A DNA stretch of 64,000 nt from contig NC_083395.1 in the NCBI RefSeq assembly GCF_030864355.1, forward strand, positions 1,860,001 through 1,924,000. The letters are read 5' to 3'. The notes below the pieces were generated by a model, which was not told the DNA's origin, did no database searches, and worked only from the letters and a program-made list of their open reading frames with translations. This document shows positions 4,714-47,227 of this stretch, piece by piece. The number at the start of each line of letters is the position of its first letter. The stretch's first letter is position 1. The position numbers and the translations under genes are program-made. This DNA comes from Cutaneotrichosporon cavernicola. Taxonomy: Eukaryota; Basidiomycota; Tremellomycetes; Trichosporonales; Trichosporonaceae.

Positions 4714-6710
4714 TCAACCCTGGTGGTTCTGGTGGTTCTGGGTATCCTTCTCCACATGCTCCTCGTGCCCGTGCTCGTGCCCGCCATCATTCTTCTCATG
4801 AGTGTGGTGGGCGAGCTCGGCAGCGGCGTCCTCCTGTTCTCGGCGCTTCTGCATCCGCTCAGCCTCCTCAGCCTTGGTGGGCATCTTGTCGTTGCGCATA
4901 ACCAGTCCACCCAAGAGTCCGAGGATACCGCCCGGCACGCCGATGAGGAACACGACCCGCATGGTGTGCGAGTACGCCTCCAGGGTTGCGGGCCGGAGAG
5001 GTTCTGGAACAATGGTCCACAGGGCATTCGCGTTACTCGTCATGACGCGTACCAGCTGCTCGGGGAGATCTGGTACGTATTTGTGGAGGTTGACCTGGAT
5101 CATGTTTTCGAACACGGAGCCAGCCAGAGATAGACCGACGATACGACCCGCAAAGCCGAAGAATGTGCCGACTCCGGTACCCATTGTGATTAGGCTCGGC
5201 TCGTCGCGCAGGTCGAATTGAATGCTAACCATTGCGTTTTGGAGAGTCATACCGATACCCGCACCAATAATGGCCTGGAATCCGTAGACGTGGGCCACAG
5301 GCGTGTTGACATGGACACTGTATAAGAGGCCTGAGCCGAGAGCAGTGAGGGCGGGGCCGGTGACAATGATCCATTTCACGTAGCCGAGTAGCGGGATGAG
5401 GCGCGAGGTGATAATCATGACGACAATCTGGACCATGATCAGCGGGAGGAGGCGGACGCCAGCGGCAGTAGCCGAGAAACGCCACTGGGTCTGAAGCGCC
5501 AGACTGAGGTAATAGACGTCGACTGCGGTTAGCGAGTTGATATTATGCAGGGACTCACTCATAAAGACGAAGAAGAGGAAAAAGAGGACAATGGTCGCGC
5601 CGAGAATATTGCGCCGGACCAACAAGTCGAGGCGGCACATCTGGCGTTTGGGACCGAGCCACCACTCGTATGTGAAGAAGATGGGGATAAGGACCAGAGA
5701 CAGGACCAGACAGACGATCACCCCTCCGTCCTTCCAGGAGCGCGAGACGCCGGCCCACTGCAATGCGAGGATGAAGCAGCACGCCCAGCCCATAGAGATG
5801 GCTGCGCCGCCCCAGTCGCAGCGGATTAGCTGGCCAAGCATCGCCTTGCCGTAGCCATTATAACTCGCCTTCATGCCCATGGGCGGGCGGGCTGGCTGAA
5901 CGAGGATCTGGAGGAGTAACGCCAACCCACCGAAAGGGAGATTGATGTAGAAGCACCAGCGCCAGGAGACGTGGTCGGAGAACACGCCACCGATTAGCGG
6001 TCCGACAACGGACGCAATGGCAAAGCAGATTCCGATGAGGGCCATGTATTGTGCGCGGCTGTGGAGTGGTGTGATCTCGGCTGCAATGACCATTGCACCG
6101 CTGAAGATGCCTGCTGATCCGGCACCGGCGATAGCGCGACCAAGGATCAGCACGTTGATATTTGGGGCGACGCCGCACACGAGTGACCCGAGCTCGAAGA
6201 TGAACACGGCGAAAATGATGACGTGTTTGGACGGGAAGATCTGGAGGAACTGCGCGTAGATGAGGTTGAAGGCGAAGAGAGGGAGGCTGGGTCAGCACCC
6301 ACTAGAAGAGAAACTCACAAGAACCCATTAGCGAGCCATGTGAGTTCGCTGAGAGCGTCAAACTCGATGGTGATCTTGGGAATTGCCGTGGCGACAATGA
6401 GCTGGTCGAGCGCAAACAGGAAAATGGAGATCATGAGGGAGATGATGACGCCCCAGAATCGAATCCTGGATAACTCGACGTACGCACCCGAGGGCCCCGT
6501 TTTCCGTGGTGTCTTGAGGCCATTGAGATGGGCTTCGGGGTCGGCGTCGGTGTCGGGGGTGGTGGTGGTGGAGTATGGAGCTGTGGAAGTGAGTGGTGGC
6601 GCCTTTGCTGATGCGGCGGCGGAGGGATGCTGTGTCGATGATGGGGATAAGGACGCCGTCGACGCGTTCAGTTCAGCCTGGTTGCTGTGTGTGCTTGGTG
6701 GCGGGGACAT
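4714..6710 (-). CDS. MFS drug:H+ antiporter, DHA2 (14-TMS) type
   Basis: Predicted plasma- or vacuolar-membrane proton-coupled exporter of toxic small molecules. Model: complement(join(4714..5522,5559..6286,6319..6710)), 642 aa; the start is the ATG at 6710 (MSPPPSTHSN). Intron 1 is 32 nt. Intron 2 is 36 nt with a CTAAC branch site; it is a multiple of three with no stop, so a naive reading would add 12 wrong residues before DVYYLSL. A Ser/Thr-rich tail is followed by TM1 (FLFALDQLIVATAIPKI, residues ~97-113), motif A-like and motif C-like segments, and the DHA2-typical block GPLIGGVFSDHVSWRWCFYI. The C-terminus is His/Glu/Asp-rich and might bind metal (inference). The relatives known to me are fungal toxin and azole efflux pumps; the substrate cannot be told from sequence. 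Confidence 0.93.
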
Positions 6711-9928: not shown

Positions 9929-10144
9929 CAAGATGTGGATGTACCGGGTCGTTGCTGGGGCATATGTACACATGTCTGAAGCTCATATGTCGACTGAAGG
10001 ACTGCATAACTCCAAGCCCAGACCAGGTCTCTGCCTCCTTTTCCAGAGTCTAGGTAACGCGGTGACTTGCAGTATGTAATCACACCCATACGCCCAATCG
10101 ACTTCTGAATTCATCACACACCTGGGACAATCACTCTACGACGC

Positions 10145-11502
10145 CTACTCAAGCATGTCATACAGCTTGCGCTCATACGCCTTCCAGACGTCGACCGTCG
10201 CAGTCTGGTCGATCTGGTCCATGAGCTGGGTGCCGCACACGGCCTGTACGTCAGCACAACCTCGCGCAAGCCCAAGGCCAAGCCCAAGCGTACCACAATG
10301 CCCGAAGCCGGGTCGATCCAGAACTTGGTCTTGGCGATGCCGCCCCAGAACGCCGAGCCCTTCTTGCGGCCGTACTCCGAGTCAGCGTCATAGACGCAGA
10401 GGGCGAGCGAGTGGAATGCCTTGTCGCCCGAGGCAAACTGCGGCTCGGTCTCGCCGAGGATCGTGAGAGTGCCGCCGAGGTGGGCGTAGCAGTTGTGGCT
10501 CTTCCCCTCCTCCTCACGCGGAGGCAAGGCGTTCTCAAACAACATTGGGAAAGTCGACTGTTTGATAAGTCCATCCTTATCCTTACACTGGAGGACGTTG
10601 CGTAGGACCGTCATATAATCGCGAGGTGAACCAACAAGACCCGCCCCGCCCATATGTAATCCAATATCCTCGGGGTTGGTATTAGGCACATCGCGCATTC
10701 CGGCAATGTGAATGAGGTTTCTCTCGGGCGTGTCGTCGCGCCCACAGAGCTGCATCAAGCGATCCTTAATCTCCGGGGTTGGATAGAATGACAGATTCTT
10801 AACGCCACAAGGCCCGAAAATGTGTTGGTCAAAGTACGCGCCGAGTTTCATCCCGGTGATCCGCATGACGAGGACGCCAGCCCAGTCGATCCCGATAGAG
10901 TAGCCGTACTGCGCGCCAGGCTGGAATGTGAGGGGTTCAACGAGGGATTCGACGCCGACGTTTTTGGCGAAGAAACTGGGCACGTTGTGGGTCATTTCCC
11001 AGCGGCCGATCAGTTCGGGTTTGAGGAAATTGTACGAGAGGCCCGACGTGTGCGTGAGAAGGCGGCGGAGGGTGAGTGGCGCCGTACGGTCGACGAGGAT
11101 GGGCGTGCCGTCGGCATTGTAGCCTTCCAGAACTTGCTGGGAGGCAAGTTCGGGGAGATGTTTCTCACTAAGAGAGGCGTCGTCGTAATCGACAAGGCCC
11201 TTCTCCCACAGCTGGAGACAGGCGAGAGAGGTGATGAACTTGGTCTGCGAGAAGAGCTGGACAGCTGATGTCAGTGTCAGGGGTAAACAAAACCTCGACG
11301 TACTGGTATTCTCATCGATCTGGCCCTTGTCCGGCTCGCCGAACACCTTGTCGCCCATTGCATTGAAGTACAGCTCGCCATCTGCATTTGACGCGCCGAA
11401 GAAGATTGCCGGGATCTTCTTCTCGGCCACCTTCTCCGCCAGGAGGGCGTCGAGCGCCGCCTTGCTGTCGGCTGAGAGCTGAGGTTTGGGAGTGACGGTC
11501 AT
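10145..11502 (-). CDS. Class-C beta-lactamase-like serine hydrolase / transesterase
   Basis: Member of the beta-lactamase-related fold used by family VIII esterases and LovD-type acyltransferases. Model: complement(join(10145..10243,10294..11264,11304..11502)), 422 aa. The catalytic Ser-x-x-Lys is SQTK in TVQLFSQTKFITSLACLQL. Downstream LTHTSGLSYN and YGYSIGIDWAG are typical of the fold and carry the likely catalytic tyrosine. Intron 1 is 39 nt and in frame, so reading through it would insert 13 false residues before SQTK. Intron 2 is 50 nt; without it the C-terminus becomes an Arg/Ser-rich artefact instead of AVCGTQLMDQIDQT ending at 10145. No signal peptide, so likely intracellular. The substrate is unknown. 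Confidence 0.92.
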
Positions 11503-11893: not shown

Positions 11894-14800
11894 ATGCCTG
11901 ATCAACCCCTTGAATCACCCACTTCTACAGCCCTCCCCATCATCGAGCCACACGATGCAGGCAGCGTGACGTCCGAGACGCGGCCGTTGCTGGGTCCTTG
12001 CAAGGCGCAACAAGAATATCAAACATTCACCATTCCAGAGGACGAGAAGCAAGACACTGTCAATTCAGTCAGCCTCTTGGCCCTGTTCCGCTTCGCGACT
12101 CCACTGGAACTCACCGTTAACGCCGTCGGCCTGCTCCTCGCCATCGTGTCAGGCGCCGCTCAGGGCATGATGCCGCTCCTCTTCGGCAACATTGCCAAGG
12201 TGTTCACAGACTATGGACGGATTGTTGGCTGGCCCAGCACGGACAACATGTCTGGCGGTATCTACGCCGAACATGAAGCCGCAAAACGCAACCTCAAGCA
12301 CGACGCCAGCAGGACAGTTCTTTGGATCACTGCAATTGGTACATAGTGTACGAGTGCGATTGCTGAAGCCAGGCATCACAACCTTGATCTGCTCCTACAC
12401 GTACACACTCATCTGGAACTGGACATCAGGGCGTCAGGCGCAACGCATCCGTGAGCAGTATCTCGGAGCCGTTCTGCGAAAAGAGGTCAAGCCGTTGGAC
12501 ACGTTCGGTGGGCGTGAGATTGCGTCGCGCATCGAGTCGGACTCATTTCTCGTCCAGATCGGCATCGGCGAGAATATTCCAATCACTATGGAGGTACTCT
12601 CGGCGTGCATCATGAGTACGTAGCGGCGTTGGCATGGGTCGCTGACACGCCAGATTTCGTTGTCGCCTATGTCCAATCACGATCCCTGGCTGGCACGGCT
12701 ACCGTGATCTTGATCTTGTTTATCATTGCTAGTGTACTCATGGGGGTGGCGATTCCAGTATACCTGTACTTTGCCGCACCGGGGGATGACAGAGCAAAGT
12801 CATCCTCCCTGGCCGGGGAAGCGGTCTCATCGATCCGTACCGTCCAGTCGATGACCAGCATCAAGCTTCTCGCCGACCGGTTTGATAGCCTCGTCGAGAA
12901 TCGGCACAAGGTTGACAGCAAGGTTGCCGTCATCGCCGGCCTATTTATAGGCGAATCGGTCTTACTTGAGTATGCGGCTCACGCCACCGCCTTCTACTTT
13001 GGTGGTGTCCTCTACGCTCAGCAAAAGGTTGACGTGGTGGCGGTCATCAGCGTCCTCTTCGTGATGCTTGGCCCGTTTACCCCTTCCAGGCCCAACTTCG
13101 AGGCAGTCGTCAACGCACAGGGTGCTGCCGCCAAGATTTTCCACACCATCGACACCGTGTCCATGATCGACTCAGCATCTCATCAAACGGAACCTGCCCT
13201 TGGAGCCGTGGACTCGGGTGAACGTAACCGTGGGCCAGGCCGAGCAGACCTCGAGCGCGTCGACAGGACGCTTCTGGCCTCTGGACCCGAGGAAGGCACG
13301 GATGAAATAGTTGATCTTTGGGGATTATTTCCCCGCATCGTCAACCTCGACCTGCTGCACGGGCAGTGGTGCTTCATTGCTCTGGTTGGGGCAGTAGCGG
13401 TCGGTGTGGCACCCCCCGCGACTGCGATTCTGTTCGGCAAGTCCATCGCTGCCTTCGAGAACCCAGACCTCCAAGAGGTGAAGCGAAACCTTGCCAGCAA
13501 AGCCTTCTGGTACTGCATTGCGGGACTCGCAACAGGAGTTGTTTACTCGCTGTCCTGGACATTTGTGAGTCTCTGGTATTGCGCTCGCTGAAGTGCGAGG
13601 TGTGTAAGATGGAGTCGAACGTAACTGCCACACTACACACCAGGGCGTTCCGTGCCATCATGCGCCACGACGTCGAGTGGTTCGACAAGAACGAGGCTGG
13701 GAATGTCACTGCTAGTCTCGAGGACGACGTGCAGGAGGGGCAGCTGCGGAGCCTGTTTTTAGTGACATTCTGCGTTGCCACCTCACTCGCGACCATTGTG
13801 GCAGGTATCATCATCGGTCTTCTCCATGCCCCCCTATTGGCGCTCATGGGAATCGCTTTCATACCTCTCATCATGGCTTCAAGCTACGTCCGTCTACGCG
13901 CCATTGATCTCAAGGAACAGCGCTTGAAGAAGACATACGCCAAGAGCACCAAGCTGGCAACCGAGGCGGCGGAGTGTGTATATATCGGTACTGTAACCTC
14001 GCTGGCGTGCAAGAGTCAAGTGATGAGCAACTACTCGCAGGCGCTCCGTGCGGCTGAAACGATCTCGACTCGCATGGCGTGGCAGTCACAAGCACTCTAT
14101 TCCATATCACAAGCGACTCTCTTGTTCATCACCGCCGCCATGTGCTACATGGGTTCACTCTGGCTCGCCGAAGGCCGATACACGACGGACAAGTTCTTCA
14201 TCTGCTTCAGTGCGGTCATCCTCTCCTCTCTCCAAGCGAGTGGCATATTCGGGTCAGTCTCCACTGCGTCGCGTGCAGCGCGGCTATTGCGCGACCTCTT
14301 CAAACTGATCGACAACACGCCCAAGATTGACATGACCTCGTCCGACGGCATCATGCTGGACCCTTCCCAGGCCTGCGGTGACATCAAGTTGAACAATGTC
14401 ACTTTCCGCTACCCCTCTCGCCCGGATGTGCCTGTCCTCGAGGGCCTGACCCTCGACATCCCGAGTGGCAAGTACGTCGCGCTAGTTGGCCCGGCGGGAT
14501 GTGGCAAGTCGACAGCCGTGCAGCTCATCCAACGCCTCTATGACCCTATCAGCGGCTCGGTCACCCTCGGCGGCGCCGATATCCGCACCCTCAACGTGGC
14601 CTCGTACCGCTCCCACATGGCGCTTGTATCACAGGCACCGTCGTTGTTCACCGGCTCCATCAGATTTAACATACTCTTGACCGCGATCGAGCCTGACACC
14701 GCAACCGAAGCGCAAATCGAGCAGGCGTGCCGCGATGCCAACATCTACGACTTCATCATGGGCTTGCCCGACGGCTTCAATACCGAGCTCGGCAGCGAGG

Positions 14801-15150
14801 GCCTGCAGCTCTCCTGTGAGCAGAGGCAGCTCCTGGCGATTGCGCGCGCGCTCATCCGCCAACCCCGCGTGTTGCTTCTGGACGAGACGCCTGCCGAACT
14901 TGACTCTGCGTCTGAACGTGTGGTACAAAAGGCCGAACTTGACTCTGCGTCGGAACGTGTGGTACAGGAGGCACTCGACAATGCGTCGGCTGGACGCACT
15001 GTTCTCGCCGTTACCTCCCGTTTATCGACAATCCAGAAAGCGGACATGATCTACTTCATGTCGGATGGTGGAGTCGTAGAAACGGGCACGCACCAGGAGA
15101 TGCTCGCCAAGCGTGGCGCGTATTTTGACTTTGTCCAGTTAACCAGTTGA
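11894..15150 (+). CDS. Degenerate ABCB-type ABC transporter lacking NBD1
   Basis: Model: join(11894..12338,12373..12615,12654..13564,13594..15150), 1051 aa; full-length fungal ABCB pumps are usually about 1250-1350. Order seen: TMD1, then directly TMD2, then one NBD. TMD1 ends FHTIDTVSMIDSASHQ, the normal entry to NBD1, but the next ~45 residues lead straight into TMD2 (LHGQWCFIALVGAVAVG). The NBD has Walker A (GPAGCGKST, ~832), Q-loop (LVSQAPSLF) and Walker B with glutamate (VLLLDE). However, its signature is LSCEQ instead of LSGGQ, its H-loop is TSRLST with Ser for His, and its D-loop is disrupted by a 39-bp tandem duplication (14893-14970). The frame is intact throughout, so the gene is probably expressed, but canonical ATP-driven transport is doubtful (inference). 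Confidence 0.88.
14893..14970 (+). repeat. 39-bp in-frame tandem duplication in ABC D-loop
   Basis: Two copies, 14893-14931 and 14932-14970, differing at 3 bases and encoding AELDSASERVVQ(K/E). The duplication adds 13 residues right after Walker B. Confidence 0.95.
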
Positions 15151-15754: not shown

Positions 15755-18700
15755 ATGGAGACCATGGATGCCGGCTGGCTTCCTCCCAGCCTGCCCCTCG
15801 GGCTTGTCCTCCGCGCGGCGAGCGTGACGGCTGGGGGGGCTTCGTCCAACGAGACCGACCAGTCGTTCATGCAGACCTATGACACAGGCACCTTCCTCGC
15901 GTCGTTGTGGACGAACATGGTGCTCGCGAGCTTGTGGTTCCTGCTATGGAACGGACTCCGGCGCGTCGTCAAGGCTGTGTACGTACCCCATCTTCATGGC
16001 TGACCTTGAGATATGAGCCGCGCACGTACATTCCCCCACGAGATCAGCAGGCCCCACCGCTGGGCAGTCACTGGTTCAAGCCGATCTGGACGGTCCTCAT
16101 GGGCGAGTTCTAGCCTCTTGTGAAACTGATACCAGCCGACCCAAAGGAGATTCTGAACAAGAACGGGGTCGACCCATACATTTTCGTGCGCTTCTTACGG
16201 TTGCTCATGAAGGCCGTGATCCCCATCTGGCTGGTGAGCTGGGTCGTTCTCTTTCCCATCAACTCGGTAGGCGGAGCGAGTAGAACGGGACTGGACATGT
16301 TCGCCATGTCGAACAGCCCCAAACTGAAGCGGTACTGGGCGCACCTGTGCCTCGCGTACTTGTTCAACGGTGAGTACAACATCGGCAGCGGCTGACGAAC
16401 AGGCTGGATCATGACGCTTCTATGGCTCGAGATGAAAGTGTGGCTCAAGACCCGCCAAGAATGGCTCGTGTCTCCCAAGCACTCGTGCACCGCGCAAGCC
16501 AGTACAGTGCTCATCACTGGCATTCCCGAGGAACTCATGGACGAGGACGCGCTCACCAAGCTCTACTCGTACTTGCCTGGTGGTGTCTATCGCGTGTGGC
16601 TTCAGCGGTGAGTGATCTTGTCGCCAGCCTGCACCCTGGACGTACCAGGAAGGCGCGATGGCTGATGACAACGAGGGCTTCCATCTGACCACAGTGACCT
16701 GCGGGACATGCCAAAGGTGTGGCAGAAGCGAATCAGCGCATGTCATGCCCTAGAGGACGCCCAAACTGCTCTGATCCGTACGGCCAACAAGATCGACGAC
16801 AAGGTTCGAAACCTCGAAGCGCATAACAAGCCCGTTCCTGAGTCACTCCGCGCACCGTCAAAGGAGGGCGAGAACGGGACAGCGACTGCAGAGATCGTAC
16901 CGGATGCCTCCCGACCGAAAATCAGACTCAAGCCGTCGTGGGCACCGTTCTCCCTCGGGTGGCTGGGCGTGGGCGAGAAGGTTGATGCCATCACCTACTA
17001 TCGCAAAGAGGTCGAGGAGTGCACCATCACGCTCACCAAGCAGCGGAAGCAGCTCGAGCACGACATCCTCACACCTGGTAATGCCCAGGACTTTTACAAG
17101 CCGCTCTCCGCGGCGTTCATCTGCTTCAATCAGCAAATGTGGGTGGTTGTGCGTAATTGCGCTAACTGATAGTGCTGCTCATATCGCAAAGGTTTTCCTG
17201 CCGTACGGCGAGCCATATCACATGGCGCACCGATACATCGAGCTGTCTCCTGACAATGTCATCTGGGGCAACATGGGCATCAAGTCGGATTACGAGCTTC
17301 ACCTGCGCACAGCTGTGTCTTTCCTGATTACGGCAGGCCTGGTGATCGCGTTCATCTTCCCAGTCGTGCTTGCAACCTTTGTTTTGCCACGAGCGGCCAA
17401 CACGTCCATTATCGGAAACGTGTGGGGAGTGGGCAGCATCGCTGTCAAAGGGGAGGGCTTTGGCTCAAAGCTCCTTCTAGGCCTGCTCACAGGTCTCGTA
17501 CCCCCCATCCTCCTCATGCTCATCCTGATGATTGCGCCGACGCTGCTGCGACAGTTGGCCAAGCTGCACAACTTCACCAAGACGGAGATAGAGCTTGACG
17601 TTATGGACCGCTACTTTGCGTTCCTGCTCATCGAGCGATTCCTCATCCCCACGATTGCAACACTGCTCCCTGAAGGCAACACGACTCAGGTGCAATGGTG
17701 GCCTGACTTTAGCCAGGGCGCATCCAAAGCACTCCAGAAGGCGTTCGAGATTCAGCTCCCACAGGCATCGACCTTTTTCATCACGCTACTGCTCCTGCAG
17801 GTGACTGGCCAGTTTGTCCAGCTGTTCTCGCCCATCACGCTCATTATCTACTACTCAAAGGTCATTCTTGGAAGCGGCACCCCGCGATCGTTTTACAACG
17901 CCCGGTATAAGATGAACAGCCCCGCCTGGGGATCGGAATGGCCAAACATGACCGTGTACTTTGTTATCCGTGAGCGGCAGCATCTTCTTTGGCTAATCCC
18001 AGTCATCGTGTACATGGTCATCGCGCCCGTTATCAATGGTTTCGGCGCCATCCTCGCCGTCGTCGCGTACCACGTCTACAAGTACTTGTACCTGTGGGTC
18101 CTGGAACAGAAGCCGACGCTCGACACGGGCGGCGAGTTCTTTCCACGGGCCATCACGCATGTGTTTGTCGGCATCTATATCGGCGAAGTCGCCCTGACCA
18201 TCATCTTCTTTGGCAAGGGCATCGATACGCTGCCGCTGGCCATCTTGATGATCATCCTAATTGTTGCATCGGTACGCTTGGCCGAGTAGGAGATGCTAAT
18301 GATCCAGGTTGCGGTCCAGTACATGCTTGTCACTGCGTACAAGCCCCTGCTGAACCCCCTGCCCCTGTCGCTGGCGCATCTCACGCACGGCCAGCCGTCG
18401 GCGGACGCCAAGTCGGACGACGATCAGGACGACAAAGTGCCCGACTTATCGAACGGGACCACGGGTGTGGACGACGAGGACGCTATGTGGTACAGGGACC
18501 CGGTCAGCCCGGTCAGCAAGGGCGTCTCCAAGCGCCAGAGCGTGATCAGCATGCGAAGCTGGCAGCTACCACAGAACTCTCCTCGCGTTCGTGCTCACGG
18601 GCGGCCGTCCGCGACAAGCTCCCCAGCCGTTCCGCCACTCGTGCGGCCGTCCGCGACAAGCTCCCCAGCCGTTCCGCCACTCGTGCTGCCCTCACCGAAA

Positions 18701-19384
18701 CCAGTAGCCACGAAACCTGAGGACGTCGAGATGAGCGACCTGCGCGCGACACGGCGGGCCACAGTCACGAGTTGGACCGCCGTCCCCCCGTCTCCAACGT
18801 CGGCCGTCCCCCCATCTCCAACATCCGCCGTCCCTCCATCTCCAACATCCGCCGTCCCTCACACCCCGACATCCGCCATCGGTCCATCCCCATTGTCTGC
18901 AGTCACGCCGTCCCCGACGTCGGACGACGCACAGACTGACGAGGTCACCGAGGACCTGCACTCGGAGACGCCAATTAACCGGCCGCGCCTCGTCTCTGGT
19001 GGCCGGAGTCGGTCCATGTCACTGGCCCCGTGGGAAGACCACCGGCATAAGCGATCCAACTCGGCGCCGCAATGGGAGCTGCGCCGATCGTCGACGAGCC
19101 GGTCGATCGAAGCCAACCAGGAAGACATTAGGCGCTACTTTGCGCGCCCCGGTGGGCCTGGTGTCATTCGTCCACCAGACGACAGTGCGTCGCCAGCAGC
19201 ATTCTTCCATCCTGCCACGCACCAGCCGCAGCCCATCATCTGGTTACCGCAGGACGACCTCGGCGTCGCGCCCGAGCAGGTCCGCGAGAACAGGAAGGAG
19301 GGCGTCAAGAGCACGACGCGCAATGCTGTACTGGACGCGAAGAACCGCGTGCTCGTCGTCGGCCCAGCCCCAGATGACAAGTAG
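15755..19384 (+). CDS. CSC1/OSCA/TMEM63-like calcium-permeable channel (DUF221)
   Basis: Predicted osmosensitive cation channel of the plasma or endo-membrane. Model: join(15755..15978,16011..16102,16136..16369,16403..16607,16695..17138,17173..18271,18308..19384), 1124 aa; ATG at 15764 is an alternative start. An N-terminal TM region is followed by the cytosolic domain (STVLITGIPEELMDEDALTKL, a basic coiled segment, FNQQIAAHIA across an intron) and the large TM core of the 7TM domain. The C-terminal ~330 residues are disordered, with repeated PPSPTSAV units and a 42-bp duplication (18603-18686). Intron 2 (16103-16135) is GC-AG; it contains an in-frame TAG (16111), and removing it gives the conserved-looking WTVLMADPKEILNKNGVD. 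The final intron (36 nt) also hides a stop. Confidence 0.92.
16103..16135 (+). other. 33-nt GC-AG intron inside the CSC1-like gene
   Basis: The donor is G|GCGAGT, the branch-like sequence is CTGAT, and the acceptor is ACCAG. Its length is a multiple of three and it carries a TAG, so without removal the gene would look like a nonsense-mutated pseudogene. Confidence 0.8.
18603..18686 (+). repeat. 42-bp in-frame tandem duplication (CSC1-like C-tail)
   Basis: Two copies, 18603-18644 and 18645-18686, encode the repeated RPSATSSPAVPPLV segment of the disordered tail. Confidence 0.93.
18778..18873 (+). repeat. Short PPSPTSAV-type coding repeats
   Basis: Four 24-27-bp units in the CSC1-like C-terminal tail, encoding Pro-Ser-Pro-Thr-Ser-Ala-Val-Pro variants. 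They are likely disordered and phosphorylatable. Confidence 0.85.
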
Positions 19385-26417: not shown

Positions 26418-27881
26418 TTACAGCTGGTACCGGAACTTGGCGGCCAGCTGGACCTCGCTGGGCCCGTGCCGACCCAGGTTGCGGCCCTCATCCATCTTAC
26501 GGTTCTCGCGCTTAAAGTACCACCTAGTGACGAGAGCCATGCCGATGCACAGCGCACTGGCGACGAGGTTGACGATGAATGCAGGTACGAACCGCGGCGG
26601 CGAAAAGTACAGATACGAGCTCCAGATGTTGGGTGTCTGTGCGAACGCGTTGAGGATCGCATACACGATTGCACGCTTAGCACTTGGGCCAGTCATGTTG
26701 GCACCGACCCAGGAGAGGATGATGGTGGACGCAGCGTAGAAGCCGAATGGGAGGAGGCACATGGCAAAGTAGCGGGGCGCTGTCTTTGTAGTTGCAACTC
26801 CGATGATATTGCCGAGAAGAGTAAAGCACATTGGGATGGCGATGTGGTACGAACGGTTGCGGGTGCGGTCAGAGCTGAAGCCGTTAATAAGCAGTCCAAT
26901 CGCGCAGAGAATGTATGGCGGCGCGGTGATTGCCAGAGTAGTTGTGCGCTTGAACCCGAGGCCTTGGACGACGATGGGGAAAAAGTTGGTGACGGTAGCG
27001 GCAATGAACGCAAATTGAAGGGTGAGGTTAAGGAGCCAAGTCTTGGGGTCGAGTAGTGCCATCTTGAGCGCCTGTAGGACGGGGACTTCGTCGTTCTCAT
27101 CCTTGGTTCCACGGTCACTCTCGAGGCGCCAGAGCAGCATGTCCTTCTCGATCGGGGTGAGCCAGCGTACGGTCTGAGGACGGTTCGGCATGACGAACGC
27201 GCACATGATAGCGACGCCGAATGTCATCGCTCCCTCGACGATGAAGAGCCACCGCCAGCCGGCGAGTCCGTGCTTCCCATCGAGTTTTAGGATACCTATG
27301 GCGAACAGGCCTCCGAAGGCATTACCGATCTGTGAGCCAGTGTAGAACGCTGCGGTGCGCAGAGCCATTTGACGGCGAGGGTAGAAGAGCGAGACAAGGA
27401 ACACGGCGCCGGGGAAGAAGGCCGCCTCGACGACGCCAAGCATGGTGCGACACACGGCGAGACCAGTGTAACTCGTCACTGCGCCAGTACTTGCGCTCAC
27501 AATGCCCCACAACGACGCGTTGAAACACAGGTAATAGGCTGGGTACTTGATCTTGCCGACGATCATGTTTGATGGGATCTGGAGCGCGACATAGCCGGCG
27601 AACAGGACGGCAACGCAGGTGCCGTATTGCTGCGTCGAAAGACCTAGGTCTTGGGCGATCCCAGCAACAAATGCTGAAGACAAATTCTGTCTGTCTAGAA
27701 AGTTGAGCAAATAAAGTAGTGTGAGGGCGGGAATGAGCATGATGTCCACCTTGCGGGTCGCGCGTTTCGCAATCTCCTCTCGCTCCTCCTCGCTCAAGGA
27801 GGCGAGCGAGTCGGGGAGGTTTACGGCCAGGTGGTCGGCGACAGCGAACGGTTCCTTGTAGATAGATTCCTTGTCATCCAT
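26418..27881 (-). CDS. MFS permease, anion:cation symporter (Dal5) family
   Basis: Predicted plasma-membrane H+ symporter for an organic anion; the family includes allantoate/ureidosuccinate, nicotinate, biotin and pantothenate carriers. A single 487-aa exon, unusual in this intron-dense window; ATG at 27881. Motifs: ATRKVDIMLIPALTLLYLLNFLDRQNL (TM1 with the family's D-R), TM4 RTMLGVVEAAFFPGAV, FYPRRQMALRTAAFY after TM4, GWRWLFIVEGAMT, and a charged C-tail. It has about 12 hydrophobic segments. The exact substrate cannot be called. A GATA-like site and a TATA palindrome lie just upstream. Confidence 0.93.
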   Translation of the reverse strand: MDDKESIYKEPFAVADHLAVNLPDSLASLSEEEREEIAKRATRKVDIMLIPALTLLYLLNFLDRQNLSSAFVAGIAQDLGLSTQQYGTCVAVLFAGYVALQIPSNMIVGKIKYPAYYLCFNASLWGIVSASTGAVTSYTGLAVCRTMLGVVEAAFFPGAVFLVSLFYPRRQMALRTAAFYTGSQIGNAFGGLFAIGILKLDGKHGLAGWRWLFIVEGAMTFGVAIMCAFVMPNRPQTVRWLTPIEKDMLLWRLESDRGTKDENDEVPVLQALKMALLDPKTWLLNLTLQFAFIAATVTNFFPIVVQGLGFKRTTTLAITAPPYILCAIGLLINGFSSDRTRNRSYHIAIPMCFTLLGNIIGVATTKTAPRYFAMCLLPFGFYAASTIILSWVGANMTGPSAKRAIVYAILNAFAQTPNIWSSYLYFSPPRFVPAFIVNLVASALCIGMALVTRWYFKRENRKMDEGRNLGRHGPSEVQLAAKFRYQL

Positions 27882-28883: not shown

Positions 28884-30094
28884 TCAGGCTTCATGCTCAT
28901 CACGTTCAAGCTCAGTGACGCCCTTCGGGTTCGTGTTGTTGTCGCTCTGTGTACGCTTGACAGTCTTCTTGGGCGCAAGAGGCTCCTTCTCGTAGACCCC
29001 CCTAGCGCGCTTGGCGCCCTTGGCGCCCTTGGCGGGAGTCTTAGTGGAGGGGATAAACTCGTCCTCGCTGTTGTCTTCGACCTCCACGACCTGCGACTTA
29101 CGCCTCGGGGCGCGTTTCGGCCCAGGTTTGAGCAGGTTTGGCTCAGTTGGTGCCGCCTTGGTGACACTGATCTTCGCCTGGGCGAGCTTTGCCTCCCTGG
29201 GGCCGAGCTGGTAGGGGGTTTCGATGAGCCCCACGTCAATGCCGTCAATCGCAATCTCCACGGGCTGACCTGCGCGAACGGCCTCAAGCTTGAGACGCGC
29301 CAGGTCAATCTGAGCATTGACGCGGCTAACAGACGCGAGGTCAGCGAGGCGCTCGATCACGGCAGCATTTCGCAGCATGAGCGTCATTGCAGTGAGGTCA
29401 GCCTCTTTGGCCTCTGACGGCGTCCGCAACACATTCGAGGAGGTTTGGGTGGGCCGGTTACCGTTCTTGGCGGCCTCGCCGGCGTTCTGGCCGTCAGCCA
29501 CCTTCACTGGGATGTCAGCCTCTGCATCAGCACACCCACCGGGGCCTTGGTGCCAAGGTAGACTGCAGGGTCTGTCTCGCCAGTGAGAGCGACTCCAACA
29601 GCGTCCGGCACGCTCCTGAGGAGGTCGACAGACTGCAGTTAGCAGATTGGAGACCGGGGATCGTGGGTGCTCGGTGGGTGGTGCTCGCGCGCTGGGCAGT
29701 GGGGAAGGTGACTCTTCACTTGCTGGGTGGACGGGGGAAGGTGACTCTTCACTTGCTGGGTGGACGGGGGAAGGTGACTCTTCACTTGCTGGGTGGACGG
29801 GGGAAGGTGACTCTTCACTTGCTGGGTGGACGGGGGAAGGTGACTCTTCACTTGCTGGGTGGACGGGGGAAGGTGACTGCTCACGGATCAACTTACCCAC
29901 GGCACGAAGCCCGCCGGCAGCTCGTTGACACCCAACTCTCCAAGCGCCTCGCGGCGATGCGCGTCGCCGGTATCGGCAGCGCCCAGAATCTGTACAAATT
30001 AGCTCAAACCGCTGTCAATAGGAGCACCCACCGCAAGTGGGTCTCCGAAGGTGGTGGCAGGGGTCGATGCCTCGGGCTGTTCAATGGGCATCAT
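28884..30094 (-). CDS. Unknown nuclear-type protein; minisatellite inside intron 2
   Basis: Function not recognised. Model: complement(join(28884..29506,29536..29632,29897..29989,30032..30094)), 291 aa, ATG at 30094. Exon junctions are in good frame and codon use: ...GDPLA|ILGAADTG..., ...LPAGFVPW|SVDLLRSVPDAVG..., ...LGTKAPV|VKVADGQ.... Intron 2 is 264 nt, with GTAAGT, CTAAC and CTGCAG, and contains a 33-bp minisatellite. Residues ~120-190 form an ordered, helix-rich part (LRNAAVIERLADLASVSRV). The C-terminus is acidic, then strongly basic (VVEVEDNSEDE, PAKGAKGAKRARG), suggesting nuclear localisation or DNA contact (inference). Confidence 0.75.
29701..29879. repeat. 33-bp minisatellite, about 5.5 copies, intronic
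   Basis: Near-identical units (GGGGGAAGGTGACTCTTCAC followed by TTGCTGGGTGGAC). It is open in frame on the minus strand as an 11-residue repeat (ASEESPSPVHP) and so mimics a coding repeat. Confidence 0.95.
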
Positions 30095-32776: not shown

Positions 32777-34445
32777 CTACATCTGGTAGCGGAAGTCAGG
32801 GTGGCCCTCGAGAACCTTGCCGTCGCGGTCGGCCTTGCGGTTCTCGAGCTTGAAGTAGACCCAGAGGCCGAAGCAGCAGAGGATCGAGGCAGCGGTCATG
32901 GCGAGCGTGATGCGGATACCAGTGGGGTATCCGTGTGGCGCCTCCTTCTCGATGAACGAGACACCGGCGATGATGCCCGAGAGACCGCCGAATGCAACGA
33001 CAATGGCTGAGGTGTATCCACGCTTGCTCTGGCGGCGAATGGCGGTCTGAGCCCACGAGATGGCGAGGGGCATGTTGGCGTTGGAGCCACCGACAGCGAT
33101 GAAGACACCGGCGTAGCGCGCAGCGAGGTGAGAAGCACCCAGCTGGCTGTACATGCAAGTGCCGATGATGACCTGGAGAGAGTTGAGGGAAATGGCCAGA
33201 GCACGCTGGTGGTACCGGTCGGCGAGGATGGCGGTGGCCATGGCAGGAATCGGGACCCACACGTAGGGCGGGGCGACGAGAATGACGTTCTTGAACCCAT
33301 TGAAGCCCATCTGCTTAAGGATACGGGGAAGGAAGTAGCTGAGCGCGTAGGTCGAAGTGCCGGAAGTGCAGAAGATGTAGGCAAAGACCCAGAGCTTGAC
33401 GTCGCACACGTACGACCAGAACTTGGCCATGGTCATGGGGTCGTACTCGGCGTCACCGCGGTCGCGTTCAATACGGGTCTCGATGAGCTCCTTCTCCTCA
33501 GGCTTGAGGAACTTGGCCTTGTCGGGGAAATCGACGATGAAGAGCATACCGACGCAAGCGATGCTGTTGTCAGCCAAGTTTTGTTGGTGAAAAAAATGCG
33601 GGCGACTTACACCATGGTCATGATACCGTTGATGATGAAGATCCAGCGCCAACCACTGAGCCCGCCACGGCCGTGGAGCTGGGAGAGGCCGTAAGCCAGA
33701 GTGGCACTGAGACCGCACACAACCACGGACAGAACGTAGAAGAAAGTGGTACGCGTCGCCATCTGGTGGCGTGGGTACCAGCATGAAATGAGGTAGGTCG
33801 CACCCGGGAAAAGCGCACATTCAAAGAGACCGAGGACAGCACGCAGACCGATCAGTGCCTGCCATGTCTGGATGAAACCGAAGCACATCCTGCCGGTCAG
33901 CCTGTCATTCTAACCAATTCTGGTACTCACATCACAACACCCCAAAGGAAGCAAGCCATGCCGAGCCACCAGCGGGCACCGAACGCGCGGAGACCAAGTT
34001 GGGACTGGTGTTAGCCTCGATGTTTGAGGAAAAAATAAACGGAATTGGTGGCAGTGGCGGTGGCGGGAATGCGACAACCGGTTTCGTCTCTAGATCAAAC
34101 ACTCACTGGGATCTCAAAAATGATGTACGGGACGAAGAAAATCATGGTGGCGATACCATAACGGTTGTTACCGTTGACAAGGTCGAGCTCGGTGTTCATA
34201 GCTTGGTCGTTGGCGGCACGTGCGAGCGAGAGATTGGTACGGTCGATGAAACTGATACAGTAAAGGAGGGACAGGACCGGAATGAGGCGGCGGTCAACTT
34301 TGCGAGTGACTGAGCGAACGAACGCCGGCGAGTATCCATCGTCGATGTCGATGGGACCCTCGTTGACGCTGGTCACCTTCTCGTTCACCGCCACCTCGGC
34401 GACCTCGACATCGGCCTTGTAGTCGCTCTTCGATGTGGTCGTCAT
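32777..34445 (-). CDS. MFS permease, anion:cation symporter (Dal5) family
   Basis: Second Dal5-type carrier of the window. Model: complement(join(32777..33563,33611..33889,33931..34004,34107..34445)), 492 aa; ATG at 34445; introns of 47, 41 and 102 nt. TM1 region VTRKVDRRLIPVLSLLYCISFIDRTNL carries the family D-R. It is followed by YGIATMIFFVPYIIFEIP|SQLGLRAFGARWWLG across intron 1, RAVLGLFECALFPGATYLIS, CWYPRHQMATRTTFFY and GWRWIFIINGIMTMV|IACV. The C-terminal half has NANMPLAISWAQTAIRRQSKR and KRGYTSAIVVAFGG, characteristic of allantoate/tartrate/vitamin-type members. Substrate unknown. It has four exons, whereas the 26418-27881 paralogue is intronless, so they are not recent duplicates. 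Confidence 0.94.
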
Positions 34446-45059: not shown

Positions 45060-47227
45060 CAACCGCGATCTTCTATGGCACCAGCGGTATGGACATCGAG
45101 GGTTCGGACTGGACATGGACATGGACATCGAGTCGACCGCTTTGACATGTCTCCATTGAGAACGGGGTCGGTGAACGGACAACTACTCGGTGGAGCGTGT
45201 CGGCTTGGTCTCATCCTCCGGAAGGAGCCATCAGCCGGACCTCGTGGGCTCAATGCCACGACAGCGCCATTGCCACGCCCACATTGATGCAGCGTATCCG
45301 AGCCAACGTAATTGGGCTGGGCTCAAGCTCGGACGACGTCTACACCGTCTGCTTGCCAGCCTTGACTTGGGTTCAGTACATGGTCACCTGCGCTGGCAAC
45401 ACTGACCAAGGTGCCGGGCATGTCCCTCGTGATACCGCCCGACTGGACAGCCCGCAAGGACAGGCGCGAAGGAGGCGCGTTCCCAGCTCAGATGGAGGTG
45501 AAGATGTTGTGCTGGAAGAGAAGATGTTGTGCTGGAAGAGAAGAGGAAGAGGAAGAGGAAGAGGAAGAGGAAGAGGAAGAGGAAGAGGAAGAGGAAGAGG
45601 AAGAGGAAGAGGAAGAGGAAGAGGAAGAGGAAGAGGAAGAGGAAGAGGAAGAGGAAGAGGGGACTCGTCTGGGTCCACTCGCAACTGACTCGGCCACAGG
45701 CCTATCCACCTCCGCTTTCCCTCCACACATCGGCGCCTACGCCCTGTCTAGTCTCCGAAACAGCCGAAGTTTTCCATCTCCATCTCCATCTCTCTGCCCT
45801 GCCCATCTCGCTAAACCAACACGCCTGTCGCTTATCAGCTCATTACCCCTGTCACAGACATCAGCCCCATTGTCTGGTTGGCTACTACGCCACCCGAACA
45901 GCCCGTGCTCCGGCCCAAGCACCGGGATCACTTGCGAGCCGGGCCCTTGCCTTGGGGCACCGGCGGGGCGAACCGGGGCAACGCGGATTGTTTCTCCGCC
46001 CCACACTGTACCGGCGGCTCGGGGCAGTGTACATTCTGCAACAGAACCCTGATGGGACAACAAACACTCGCACCGAGACTTTTCAGTGTCTGAGCGTTGG
46101 TGCGAGCGACAGGGAGAGTGGTGCGAGAGACAGAGACCATTGGGATCGGGAACGGGAGTAGTAGCTCGGGGATGGGCTCATCGCCTTGACGGCGAGGGCC
46201 GAGGAAAGGAGAGCAAGGAAAAGCAAGAGATCGTGACACCGAGCGCTAGGCCCCGGGCCCGAGGCGAATGCCTGGCGCACGCCCGACGACGACGCGTGCC
46301 CGCAGCCCGCAGCCCGCGCCCCCCTCCACCCCCCGTGACGCAGCATTCCCCAGTCGGCTATGCACGGTCCCAGACGGCCACATCCAGCTTTGCAGGGGTA
46401 CGTCACGCACGACGACGCCGTAATCGCATGCAAGCGAGCCGTCAGGAGCGGCAAGACCACCATCCCAGAACGGCAGGTCGACGGCGGCGCCACCGGCGAG
46501 CGCCCCGGATCTGGTGGCGTTGGATCATCAAGCCTGCTCCGTAGCACCGCACGACGATGTAGAGATGGTGCCTCGGTGCCTGGCTGATATAAGACTGGCA
46601 TATCGTGATCGTCATCACAGTGCCCATGTCCGCCATCGCCACTTGTCTACTTGGGCATAAACCATGTGCGAGCGTCTCCCCTTATCTCGCATTGATTGGT
46701 GTCAAGGTCCCTCATCTCAAGGCAAGAAACCCCCTCGGTATCCACTTACCCCAGCGTCACGGCAGTGCAGTTTCTGCGCTCGTCGCGGACCACGTAGCCG
46801 TCCAACTGCCATCTCGCTCGCGCGGACCGCGCACCCAGACCCACTGACCATCTTCCGTCTCTGTCTTCCCGCCCAGCCTTGCCCACCTCGGCCTCAGTTC
46901 CTCAAGAGTAAGAGTGCAAGCGAGGGAGGCTCGGAAGGCTCGCGTTCCCTCACCCACCCATTTGGTGTTCCGCGCGCGAGGAGTAAAGGTGCTTCCCTCC
47001 ACTGGTACACCGAGTGGACGCCAAGCTCCGCAATCGGTCCCACGCCCTTGAATACACCGCGCCCGGGACTCGCAACCGGACCAGCACCGTGTCCACCGCA
47101 TCCCATCCCTATTGTCAAGCACACGCACCAGTCGGCGGCGCGGTCCGTCATGCCCGAACTCGACCTGTACTTTGGCACAAGCGGCCCCGCACGTCGTTTA
47201 CGCGCCTCCAGCGCCCCACGTCATTAG
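45060..47227 (+). other. Unresolved possible multi-exon gene
   Basis: Several segments have gene-like codon use but I could not join them into one model. They are around 45370-45510 (…LATLTKVPGM SLVIPPDWTAR), 45860-46080 (SPIVWLATTPPEQP, then two Cys pairs in CTGGSGQCTFCN), 46396-46560 (GYVTHDDAVIACKRAVRSG) and 47120-47227 (MPELDLYFGTSGPARR, TAG). A 20-copy hexamer repeat lies between the first two. The Cys-x2-Cys pair could be part of a zinc finger, perhaps of a regulator, but no family is recognised. It may be one gene, two genes or none. Confidence 0.3.
45533..45660. repeat. (GGAAGA)n hexanucleotide array, ~20 copies
   Basis: About 120 bp of near-perfect GAGGAA/GGAAGA units, preceded by a 20-bp direct duplication (AAGATGTTGTGCTGGAAGAG, 45501 and 45521). 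It reads as poly-Glu, Gly-Arg or Arg-Lys depending on frame. Confidence 0.96.

What the first reader, a model, noticed from the sequence alone, without database searches (positions are those of the whole stretch)
11894..15150. ABCB transporter with NBD1 deleted and a crippled NBD2, yet an intact frame
TMD1 runs directly into TMD2 through a ~45-residue linker where about 300 residues of NBD1 and linker should be. The remaining NBD keeps Walker A, Q-loop and Walker B but has LSCEQ for LSGGQ, Ser in place of the H-loop His, and a 39-bp duplication in the D-loop. Two TMDs with one non-canonical NBD and no stop or frameshift suggest a repurposed protein (lipid or ligand-gated, or dominant-negative partner) rather than fresh decay.
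Basis: partly seen in the sequence, partly recalled or inferred. Interest (0 to 1): 0.8.

Follow-up and report, generated by a model that had tools for sequence, protein, structure and literature searches.

The report
ABC pump missing one motor domain
A cave yeast and its closest sequenced relative share a membrane-pump gene that has lost one of its two ATP motors and has a damaged second one, yet still reads as one intact protein, so it probably no longer pumps and is either doing another job or slowly fading.

Summary
Window 11894-15150 (Cutaneotrichosporon cavernicola) is a four-exon gene (introns 34, 38, 35 nt) for a 1049-aa TMD1-TMD2-NBD2 protein; the frame is intact only after splicing. 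The missing piece is essentially NBD1 alone (about 273 residues against the C. oleaginosum full-length relative). The orthologue of Cutaneotrichosporon sp. HIS471 (86% identical) shares the deletion, the Ser for the H-loop His and a broken signature (LSREQ; here LSCEQ), so assembly collapse and fresh decay are unlikely. The 39-bp duplication is seen only in C. cavernicola. Of 236 ABC proteins retrieved (capped lists), only these 2 are TMD-TMD-NBD. Since the two species split, changes hit family-conserved columns as often as the average (10.5% in the most conserved quarter; 0.4-3.9% in nine control pairs): pump-type constraint is gone. Yet no stop appears, eight of eight internal indels are whole codons, and protein divergence (10.4%) lies below a neutral lower bound (about 13.7%). 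Best reading: a pump-dead ABCB protein whose frame is still kept, role unproven; a slowly decaying relic is a close second. 'Repurposed' is possible, not shown.

The parts
11894..12338 (+). Exon 1: start codon, N-terminal tail and start of TMD1
   Evidence: ORF list and splicing; same N-terminus in P0001
12339..12372 (+). Intron 1, 34 nt, GTACAT..CCAG
   Evidence: Removal gives gap-free alignment to P0003 here; same intron in P0001; sizes of 32-50 nt are normal
12373..12615 (+). Exon 2, TMD1
12616..12653 (+). Intron 2, 38 nt, GTACGT..CTGACACGCCAG
   Evidence: same intron in P0001
12654..13564 (+). Exon 3: end of TMD1, linker, start of TMD2
12074..13141 (+). TMD1 (residues 61-392, introns included in the span); TM6 carries 1- and 2-residue deletions
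   Evidence: P0003 matches, alignment, in-house TMD HMM, model helices
13180..13181 (+). Junction where NBD1 is missing (after residue 405, IDSAS)
   Evidence: Alignment with P0002, P0003 and others
13181..13315 (+). Linker, residues 406-450, resembles the native NBD1-TMD2 linker; low confidence in the model
   Evidence: by eye; (residues 407-445 pLDDT under 50)
13565..13599 (+). Intron 3, 35 nt, GTGAGT..GCGAG; acceptor uncertain (P0001 model uses 13593)
13600..15150 (+). Exon 4: rest of TMD2, NBD2, stop
13316..14295 (+). TMD2 (residues 451-765, intron 3 included in the span)
   Evidence: PF00664 E=1.8e-29 on its exon-4 part
13975..14016 (+). Fourth coupling-helix region with 2-residue insertion (CVYIGTVTSLACKS for GSIRTVASLTREK)
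   Evidence: model block pLDDT 57 and no helix there
14383..15147 (+). NBD2, the only NBD
   Evidence: PF00005 E=4.5e-26
14488..14514 (+). Walker A GPAGCGKST
14632..14634 (+). Q-loop Gln kept; the following Glu is Ala (Val in HIS471)
14809..14823 (+). Signature LSCEQ (HIS471 LSREQ)
14881..14886 (+). Walker B Asp and the catalytic-position Glu, kept
14893..14970 (+). 39-bp in-frame tandem duplication at the D-loop; second copy is the more ancestral-like
   Evidence: absent from P0002
15016..15018 (+). Ser codon in place of the H-loop His

Best explanation
The gene is the C. cavernicola member of a full-length ABCB exporter lineage (C. oleaginosum P0003). It lost NBD1, and nearly only NBD1, before C. 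cavernicola and strain HIS471 parted, and it is still kept as a protein-coding gene. Shown by sequence: TMD1, TMD2 and NBD2 remain; residues for binding one ATP in cis (A-loop Tyr, Walker A, Walker B) remain; the signature that would close a partner's site and the H-loop His are lost in both species. Inferred: with NBD1 gone neither of the two ATP sandwich sites of an ABCB exporter can form within the molecule, and a homodimer of NBD2s would have broken signatures on both sides, so it is not an ATP-driven pump. Inferred from P-glycoprotein work (PMC4505440): the joint of NBD2 with intracellular loops 2 and 3 is the linchpin of assembly while the NBD1 joint tolerates mutation, so the molecule could still fold, with NBD2 as an ATP-binding or purely structural clamp. 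What it then does (passive lipid or ligand binding, a partner or decoy for other transporters) is open.
For: Two species share the architecture and lesions; tree joins both with P0003 and P0121 at 100/100. Frame is kept: no stop in 1049 codons here; 4.5-5.1 stops expected for 107 neutral changes over both lineages, chance of none 0.013-0.020, but only 0.03-0.10 for the C. cavernicola branch alone. Eight of eight internal indels between the two are whole codons, 1.5e-4 at one in three. Residue divergence 107/1025 = 10.4% against 13.7 +- 1.1% neutral at 6.5% nucleotide divergence (ANI about 93.4%). Changes are somewhat more conservative than neutral by BLOSUM62, P 0.008-0.035. The model folds both TMDs and NBD2 with confidence (mean pLDDT 83.4, pTM 0.79) and matches full-length ABCBs (Foldseek best 7qks, E=1.4e-52).
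Against: Substitutions since the split ignore family conservation: 25/239, 24/239, 11/239, 38/242 by quarter, P=0.18. Hydropathy of changes is not significantly constrained, overall P 0.07-0.11, by region 0.12-0.39. 22 of 122 near-invariant columns are lost in both species. The expected weakening of loops 1 and 4 against 2 and 3 is only a trend by score (one-sided P 0.083 and 0.053) and absent, or reversed at the 0.8 cut-off, by counts. No orthologue was listed for C. spelunceum, so the gene looks dispensable. No expression data; gene models disagree on intron 3. The frame of HIS471 is known only from its annotated protein.
Confidence: 0.5

Rival explanations
1. A relic in slow decay: after losing NBD1 the gene is under little or no selection and its frame is open partly by luck and short time.
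For: Flat distribution of changes over conserved and variable columns, unlike nine control pairs; near-neutral hydropathy of changes; different further lesions in each species (LSC/LSR, D-loop duplication or deletions); excess loss at conserved columns already on the stem (10.3% against 2.9% and 1.4% on the two outgroup branches in the most conserved quarter); no listed C. spelunceum orthologue. About 300 of more than 1300 curated ABC gene models in mycorrhizal fungi are fragments or pseudogenes (abstract of PMC4692070).
Against: No stop, eight of eight whole-codon indels, divergence below the neutral lower bound; the stem still shows a conservation gradient (18/143 to 31/80, P=4.7e-6), so at least part of it was constrained.
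Confidence: 0.4
2. It still works as an ATP-driven transporter by pairing with another molecule that supplies an NBD in trans.
For: NBD2 keeps A-loop, Walker A and Walker B; two full-length ABCB paralogues exist in the genome.
Against: Signature, D-loop and H-loop of NBD2 are broken, so two sites would be defective; no separate gene for an NBD1 of this lineage was found: the best matches to the NBD1 of P0003 are the NBDs of the two full-length paralogues (68, 66, 58, 53%) and then this gene's own NBD2 (49 matches); conserved columns are not protected.
Confidence: 0.05
3. Artefact: NBD1 lost in assembly, or an NBD1 exon missed.
For: Gene models are automatic and disagree on intron 3.
Against: HIS471 was assembled separately and shares the junction; HIS019 and HIS471 genome structure was confirmed by PacBio (PMC10568926); frame and homology run through the junction without an intron; the NBD1 of P0003 finds only NBD2 in the window.
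Confidence: 0.03

Closest known systems
Full-length fungal ABC-B exporters (C. oleaginosum P0003, STE6/MDR1-like)
   Same: Same lineage by tree, same TMD fold in the model, neighbouring beta-lactamase-like gene has a C. oleaginosum relative on a contig of the same length as that of P0003 (2,699,508)
   Different: Lacks NBD1; signature and H-loop of NBD2 broken; conserved columns no longer protected
Anopheles sinensis 'short form' ABCC with TMD-TMD-NBD (passage in PMC6471920)
   Same: Same order of domains on paper
   Different: Another subfamily, insect, and only named there; the tomato survey (passage in PMC6062036) treats odd arrangements as prediction errors or pseudogenes
Yeast Adp1 (ABC-G; passage in PMC2848647)
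   Same: Two membrane domains and one NBD
P-glycoprotein truncations (passages in PMC4505440)
   Same: Show that NBD2 with loops 2 and 3, not NBD1 with loops 1 and 4, decides assembly
   Different: Laboratory constructs; those in the passages lack NBD2 or both NBDs, not NBD1 alone

Membership tests
Full-length ABC-B exporter | Two ABC_membrane TMDs | tested here: met
Full-length ABC-B exporter | Two NBDs | tested here: not met
   One NBD
Full-length ABC-B exporter | LSGGQ signature and H-loop His able to complete an ATP site | tested here: not met
   LSCEQ/LSREQ and Ser in both species
Full-length ABC-B exporter | Descent from the ABC-B lineage | tested here: met
   Tree of 34 proteins, 100/100 with P0003 and P0121; nearest-sister order 94/50 is weak
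Full-length ABC-B exporter | ATP-driven transport | not testable with these tools
   -
[quoted passage not shown]
   Two TMDs
Pseudogene | Stops or frameshifts | tested here: not met
   None in the spliced frame; HIS471 protein runs full length
Pseudogene | Substitution pattern without constraint | tested here: inconclusive
   Flat over conservation, but divergence below neutral and whole-codon indels
Pseudogene | No expression | not tested
   RNA reads exist (PMC10568926) but could not be reached

The most novel reading that the evidence does not exclude
A eukaryotic ABCB exporter turned, by clean loss of one NBD, into a maintained non-pumping membrane protein whose remaining NBD is an ATP-binding or structural clamp on loops 2 and 3 without ATPase work: a natural counterpart of an NBD1-deleted P-glycoprotein.
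Probability: 0.35. Interest if true: 0.65.

Novelty: new variant of a known kind. Interest (0 to 1): 0.4.

Why it matters
If the protein is made and used, it is a natural experiment on which parts of a P-glycoprotein-like molecule are needed for folding and which only for pumping, and a case of an exporter outliving its motor. If it is a relic, it is a warning that an open frame, a public gene model and a good structure prediction do not show that an ABC gene still pumps: annotation by homology would call this an efflux pump.

Tried and rejected
Rejected: assembly collapse (shared with HIS471); a split gene with NBD1 elsewhere (one search found no such gene; none in the window); mini-introns as disguised lesions (six other introns are 32-50 nt, and removal of introns 1 and 2 gives a gap-free fit; intron 3 is less sure, its acceptor differs between models and paralogues read through that place). 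Tried without a clear answer: whether loops 1 and 4, which face NBD1, decayed more than loops 2 and 3 (counts not significant at five cut-offs, at 0.8 in the wrong direction, 3/23 against 4/13; scores one-sided P 0.083 and 0.053); whether the cis ATP-binding part decayed less than the signature-to-end part (P 0.23-0.59); hydropathy constraint; codon usage (GC3 0.692, index 0.567, like two neighbours at 0.692-0.727 and 0.575-0.592, below the paralogues, whose own codons were in the reference set). dN/dS could not be computed: no HIS471 DNA within reach. Papers: searches listed none describing an NBD1-less ABCB as here; that is a statement about these listings only.

Reading of papers: PMC10568926 outline with abstract, passages and section 8; PMC4505440, PMC2848647, PMC4692070, PMC2984421, PMC9605142, PMC6471920, PMC6062036 passages only; PMC6490891 listing only. 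Coupling-helix positions and motif roles are partly recalled; the pairing of loops with NBDs was seen in PMC4505440.

Full report
What is there. The window is part of a 20.2-Mb, 8-contig yeast genome. Its gene at 11894-15150 gives a 1049-aa protein after removal of three GT-AG introns of 34, 38 and 35 nt. The best database match is CcaverHIS002_0307200 of Cutaneotrichosporon cavernicola (P0001, 1051 aa). It differs from the window by one residue (position 37) and by the acceptor of intron 3, so the window is C. cavernicola, strain not determined. Introns of this size are normal here: six others, in the beta-lactamase-like neighbour and in two ABCB paralogues, measure 32-50 nt.

Domains. Pfam finds ABC_membrane on both membrane halves (E=3.3e-9 on the exon-3 piece, 1.8e-29 on exon 4) and ABC_tran once (4.5e-26). 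With in-house TMD and NBD profiles, P0001 and P0002 are the only 2 of 236 retrieved ABC proteins with the order TMD-TMD-NBD; 181 are TMD-NBD-TMD-NBD. The 236 are the listed best hits of two capped searches, so this says nothing about unlisted proteins.

What was lost. Against the C. oleaginosum full-length protein P0003 the gap covers residues 402-674, essentially NBD1. The linker left behind lines up by eye with the native linker of P0003 (sequences). No remnant of NBD1 is in the window: the NBD1 of P0003 finds NBD2. No stand-alone NBD1 of this lineage is in the genome: its best matches are the NBDs of the two full-length paralogues on contig C5.

Not an artefact and not fresh. Cutaneotrichosporon sp. 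HIS471 has an annotated orthologue, P0002, 1045 aa, 918 identical of 1025 aligned residues, with the same junction. The genomes were assembled separately from long reads, with PacBio confirmation for HIS019 and HIS471 (PMC10568926, passages). The two species have about 93.4% average nucleotide identity (section 8). Shared lesions: NBD1, His to Ser at the H-loop, Gly-Gly of the signature (Cys-Glu here, Arg-Glu there), the Glu after the Q-loop Gln, the Arg after the signature, the insertion at the fourth coupling helix. The 39-bp duplication is not in the HIS471 protein.

Descent. A tree of 34 proteins joins the two short proteins with P0003 and the metagenome protein P0121 at 100/100; their placing beside P0003 within that group is weak (94/50). 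The stem of the two is 1.56 changes per column, against 0.26 for P0003 and 0.31 for P0121. The adjacent beta-lactamase-like gene (CcaverHIS002_0307190, next to _0307200) has relatives in C. spelunceum and in C. oleaginosum, the latter on a contig with the same length as that of P0003; that suggests, but does not prove, a shared neighbourhood. No C. spelunceum protein of this lineage was listed; its two listed ABCBs group with other paralogues.

Constraint lost. Between the two species 98 of 959 scored columns differ: 25/239, 24/239, 11/239 and 38/242 from most to least conserved quarter, P=0.18. In nine control pairs of ordinary relatives the most conserved quarter changes at 0.4-3.9% and P is 1e-10 to 1e-25. 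The pairs are not independent (some share members) and some members are partial metagenome proteins. Restricting to columns where at least one species keeps the consensus gives 9/114, 10/114, 9/114, 15/115, P=0.081. Of 122 near-invariant columns the window protein has lost 27, HIS471 25, both 22, P0003 3. On the stem a gradient remains (18/143, 29/131, 23/102, 31/80; P=4.7e-6), shallower than on the branches of P0003 and P0121 (second half of the protein only). So constraint weakened on the stem and is hardly visible after the split.

Frame kept. For 107 neutral residue changes 4.5-5.1 stops are expected and none has probability 0.013-0.020; for the C. cavernicola branch alone 0.03-0.10. Of ten gaps between the two proteins I set aside one at the uncertain intron-3 acceptor and one at the C-terminus; the other eight are whole codons, 1.5e-4 if one in three indels keeps frame. 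A protein alignment can only show whole residues, so this rests on both sides of each gap staying in register. At 6.5% nucleotide divergence neutral change predicts 13.7 +- 1.1% residue differences; 10.4% is seen. The genome average includes constrained sites, so true neutral divergence is probably higher and the shortfall larger; a local difference in divergence could mimic it. BLOSUM62 scores of changes are a little higher than neutral (P 0.008-0.035); hydropathy is not.

Structure. The AlphaFold2 model of P0001 has mean pLDDT 83.4 and pTM 0.79, with residues 1-52, 407-445 (linker) and 967-979 (duplication) under 50 and 57 at 661-670, where the fourth coupling helix is not formed. Such a model leans on the family alignment and does not show that the protein is stable. 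Foldseek finds STE6-2p and P-glycoprotein.

Mechanism. An ABCB exporter needs two NBDs that close on two ATP molecules (established knowledge). Here NBD1 is gone and NBD2 lacks the signature and the H-loop His, so ATP-driven pumping is very unlikely. In P-glycoprotein, mutations at the joint of NBD2 with loops 2 and 3 block assembly while the NBD1 joint is tolerant (passages of PMC4505440). That makes a folded NBD1-less protein plausible. The matching prediction, stronger decay of loops 1 and 4, is only a trend. I therefore give 0.5 to a kept, pump-dead protein, 0.4 to a slow relic, 0.05 to a pump working in trans and 0.03 to an artefact.

Noticed in passing
window 10114-11502 (-): Divergently placed beta-lactamase-like (PF00144) gene, 390 bp from the start of the ABC gene, orthologues in C. 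spelunceum and C. oleaginosum; two introns of 39 and 50 nt.
   Followed up: partly
window 16904-19381 (+): CSC1/OSCA-like channel gene (RSN1_7TM, PHM7_ext) downstream.
   Followed up: no
window 29701-29878, inside an ORF at 28884-29900 (-): 5.4 copies of a 33-bp unit, 100% matching: an 11-residue repeat if that frame is coding, probably young or homogenised.
   Followed up: no
window 45534-45660: About 21 copies of the hexamer GGAAGA, in overlapping open frames.
   Followed up: no
window 4717-6207 (-), 26421-27881 (-), 32780-33820 (-): Three MFS transporter matches in the same window as the ABC gene and the serine-hydrolase-like gene.
   Followed up: no
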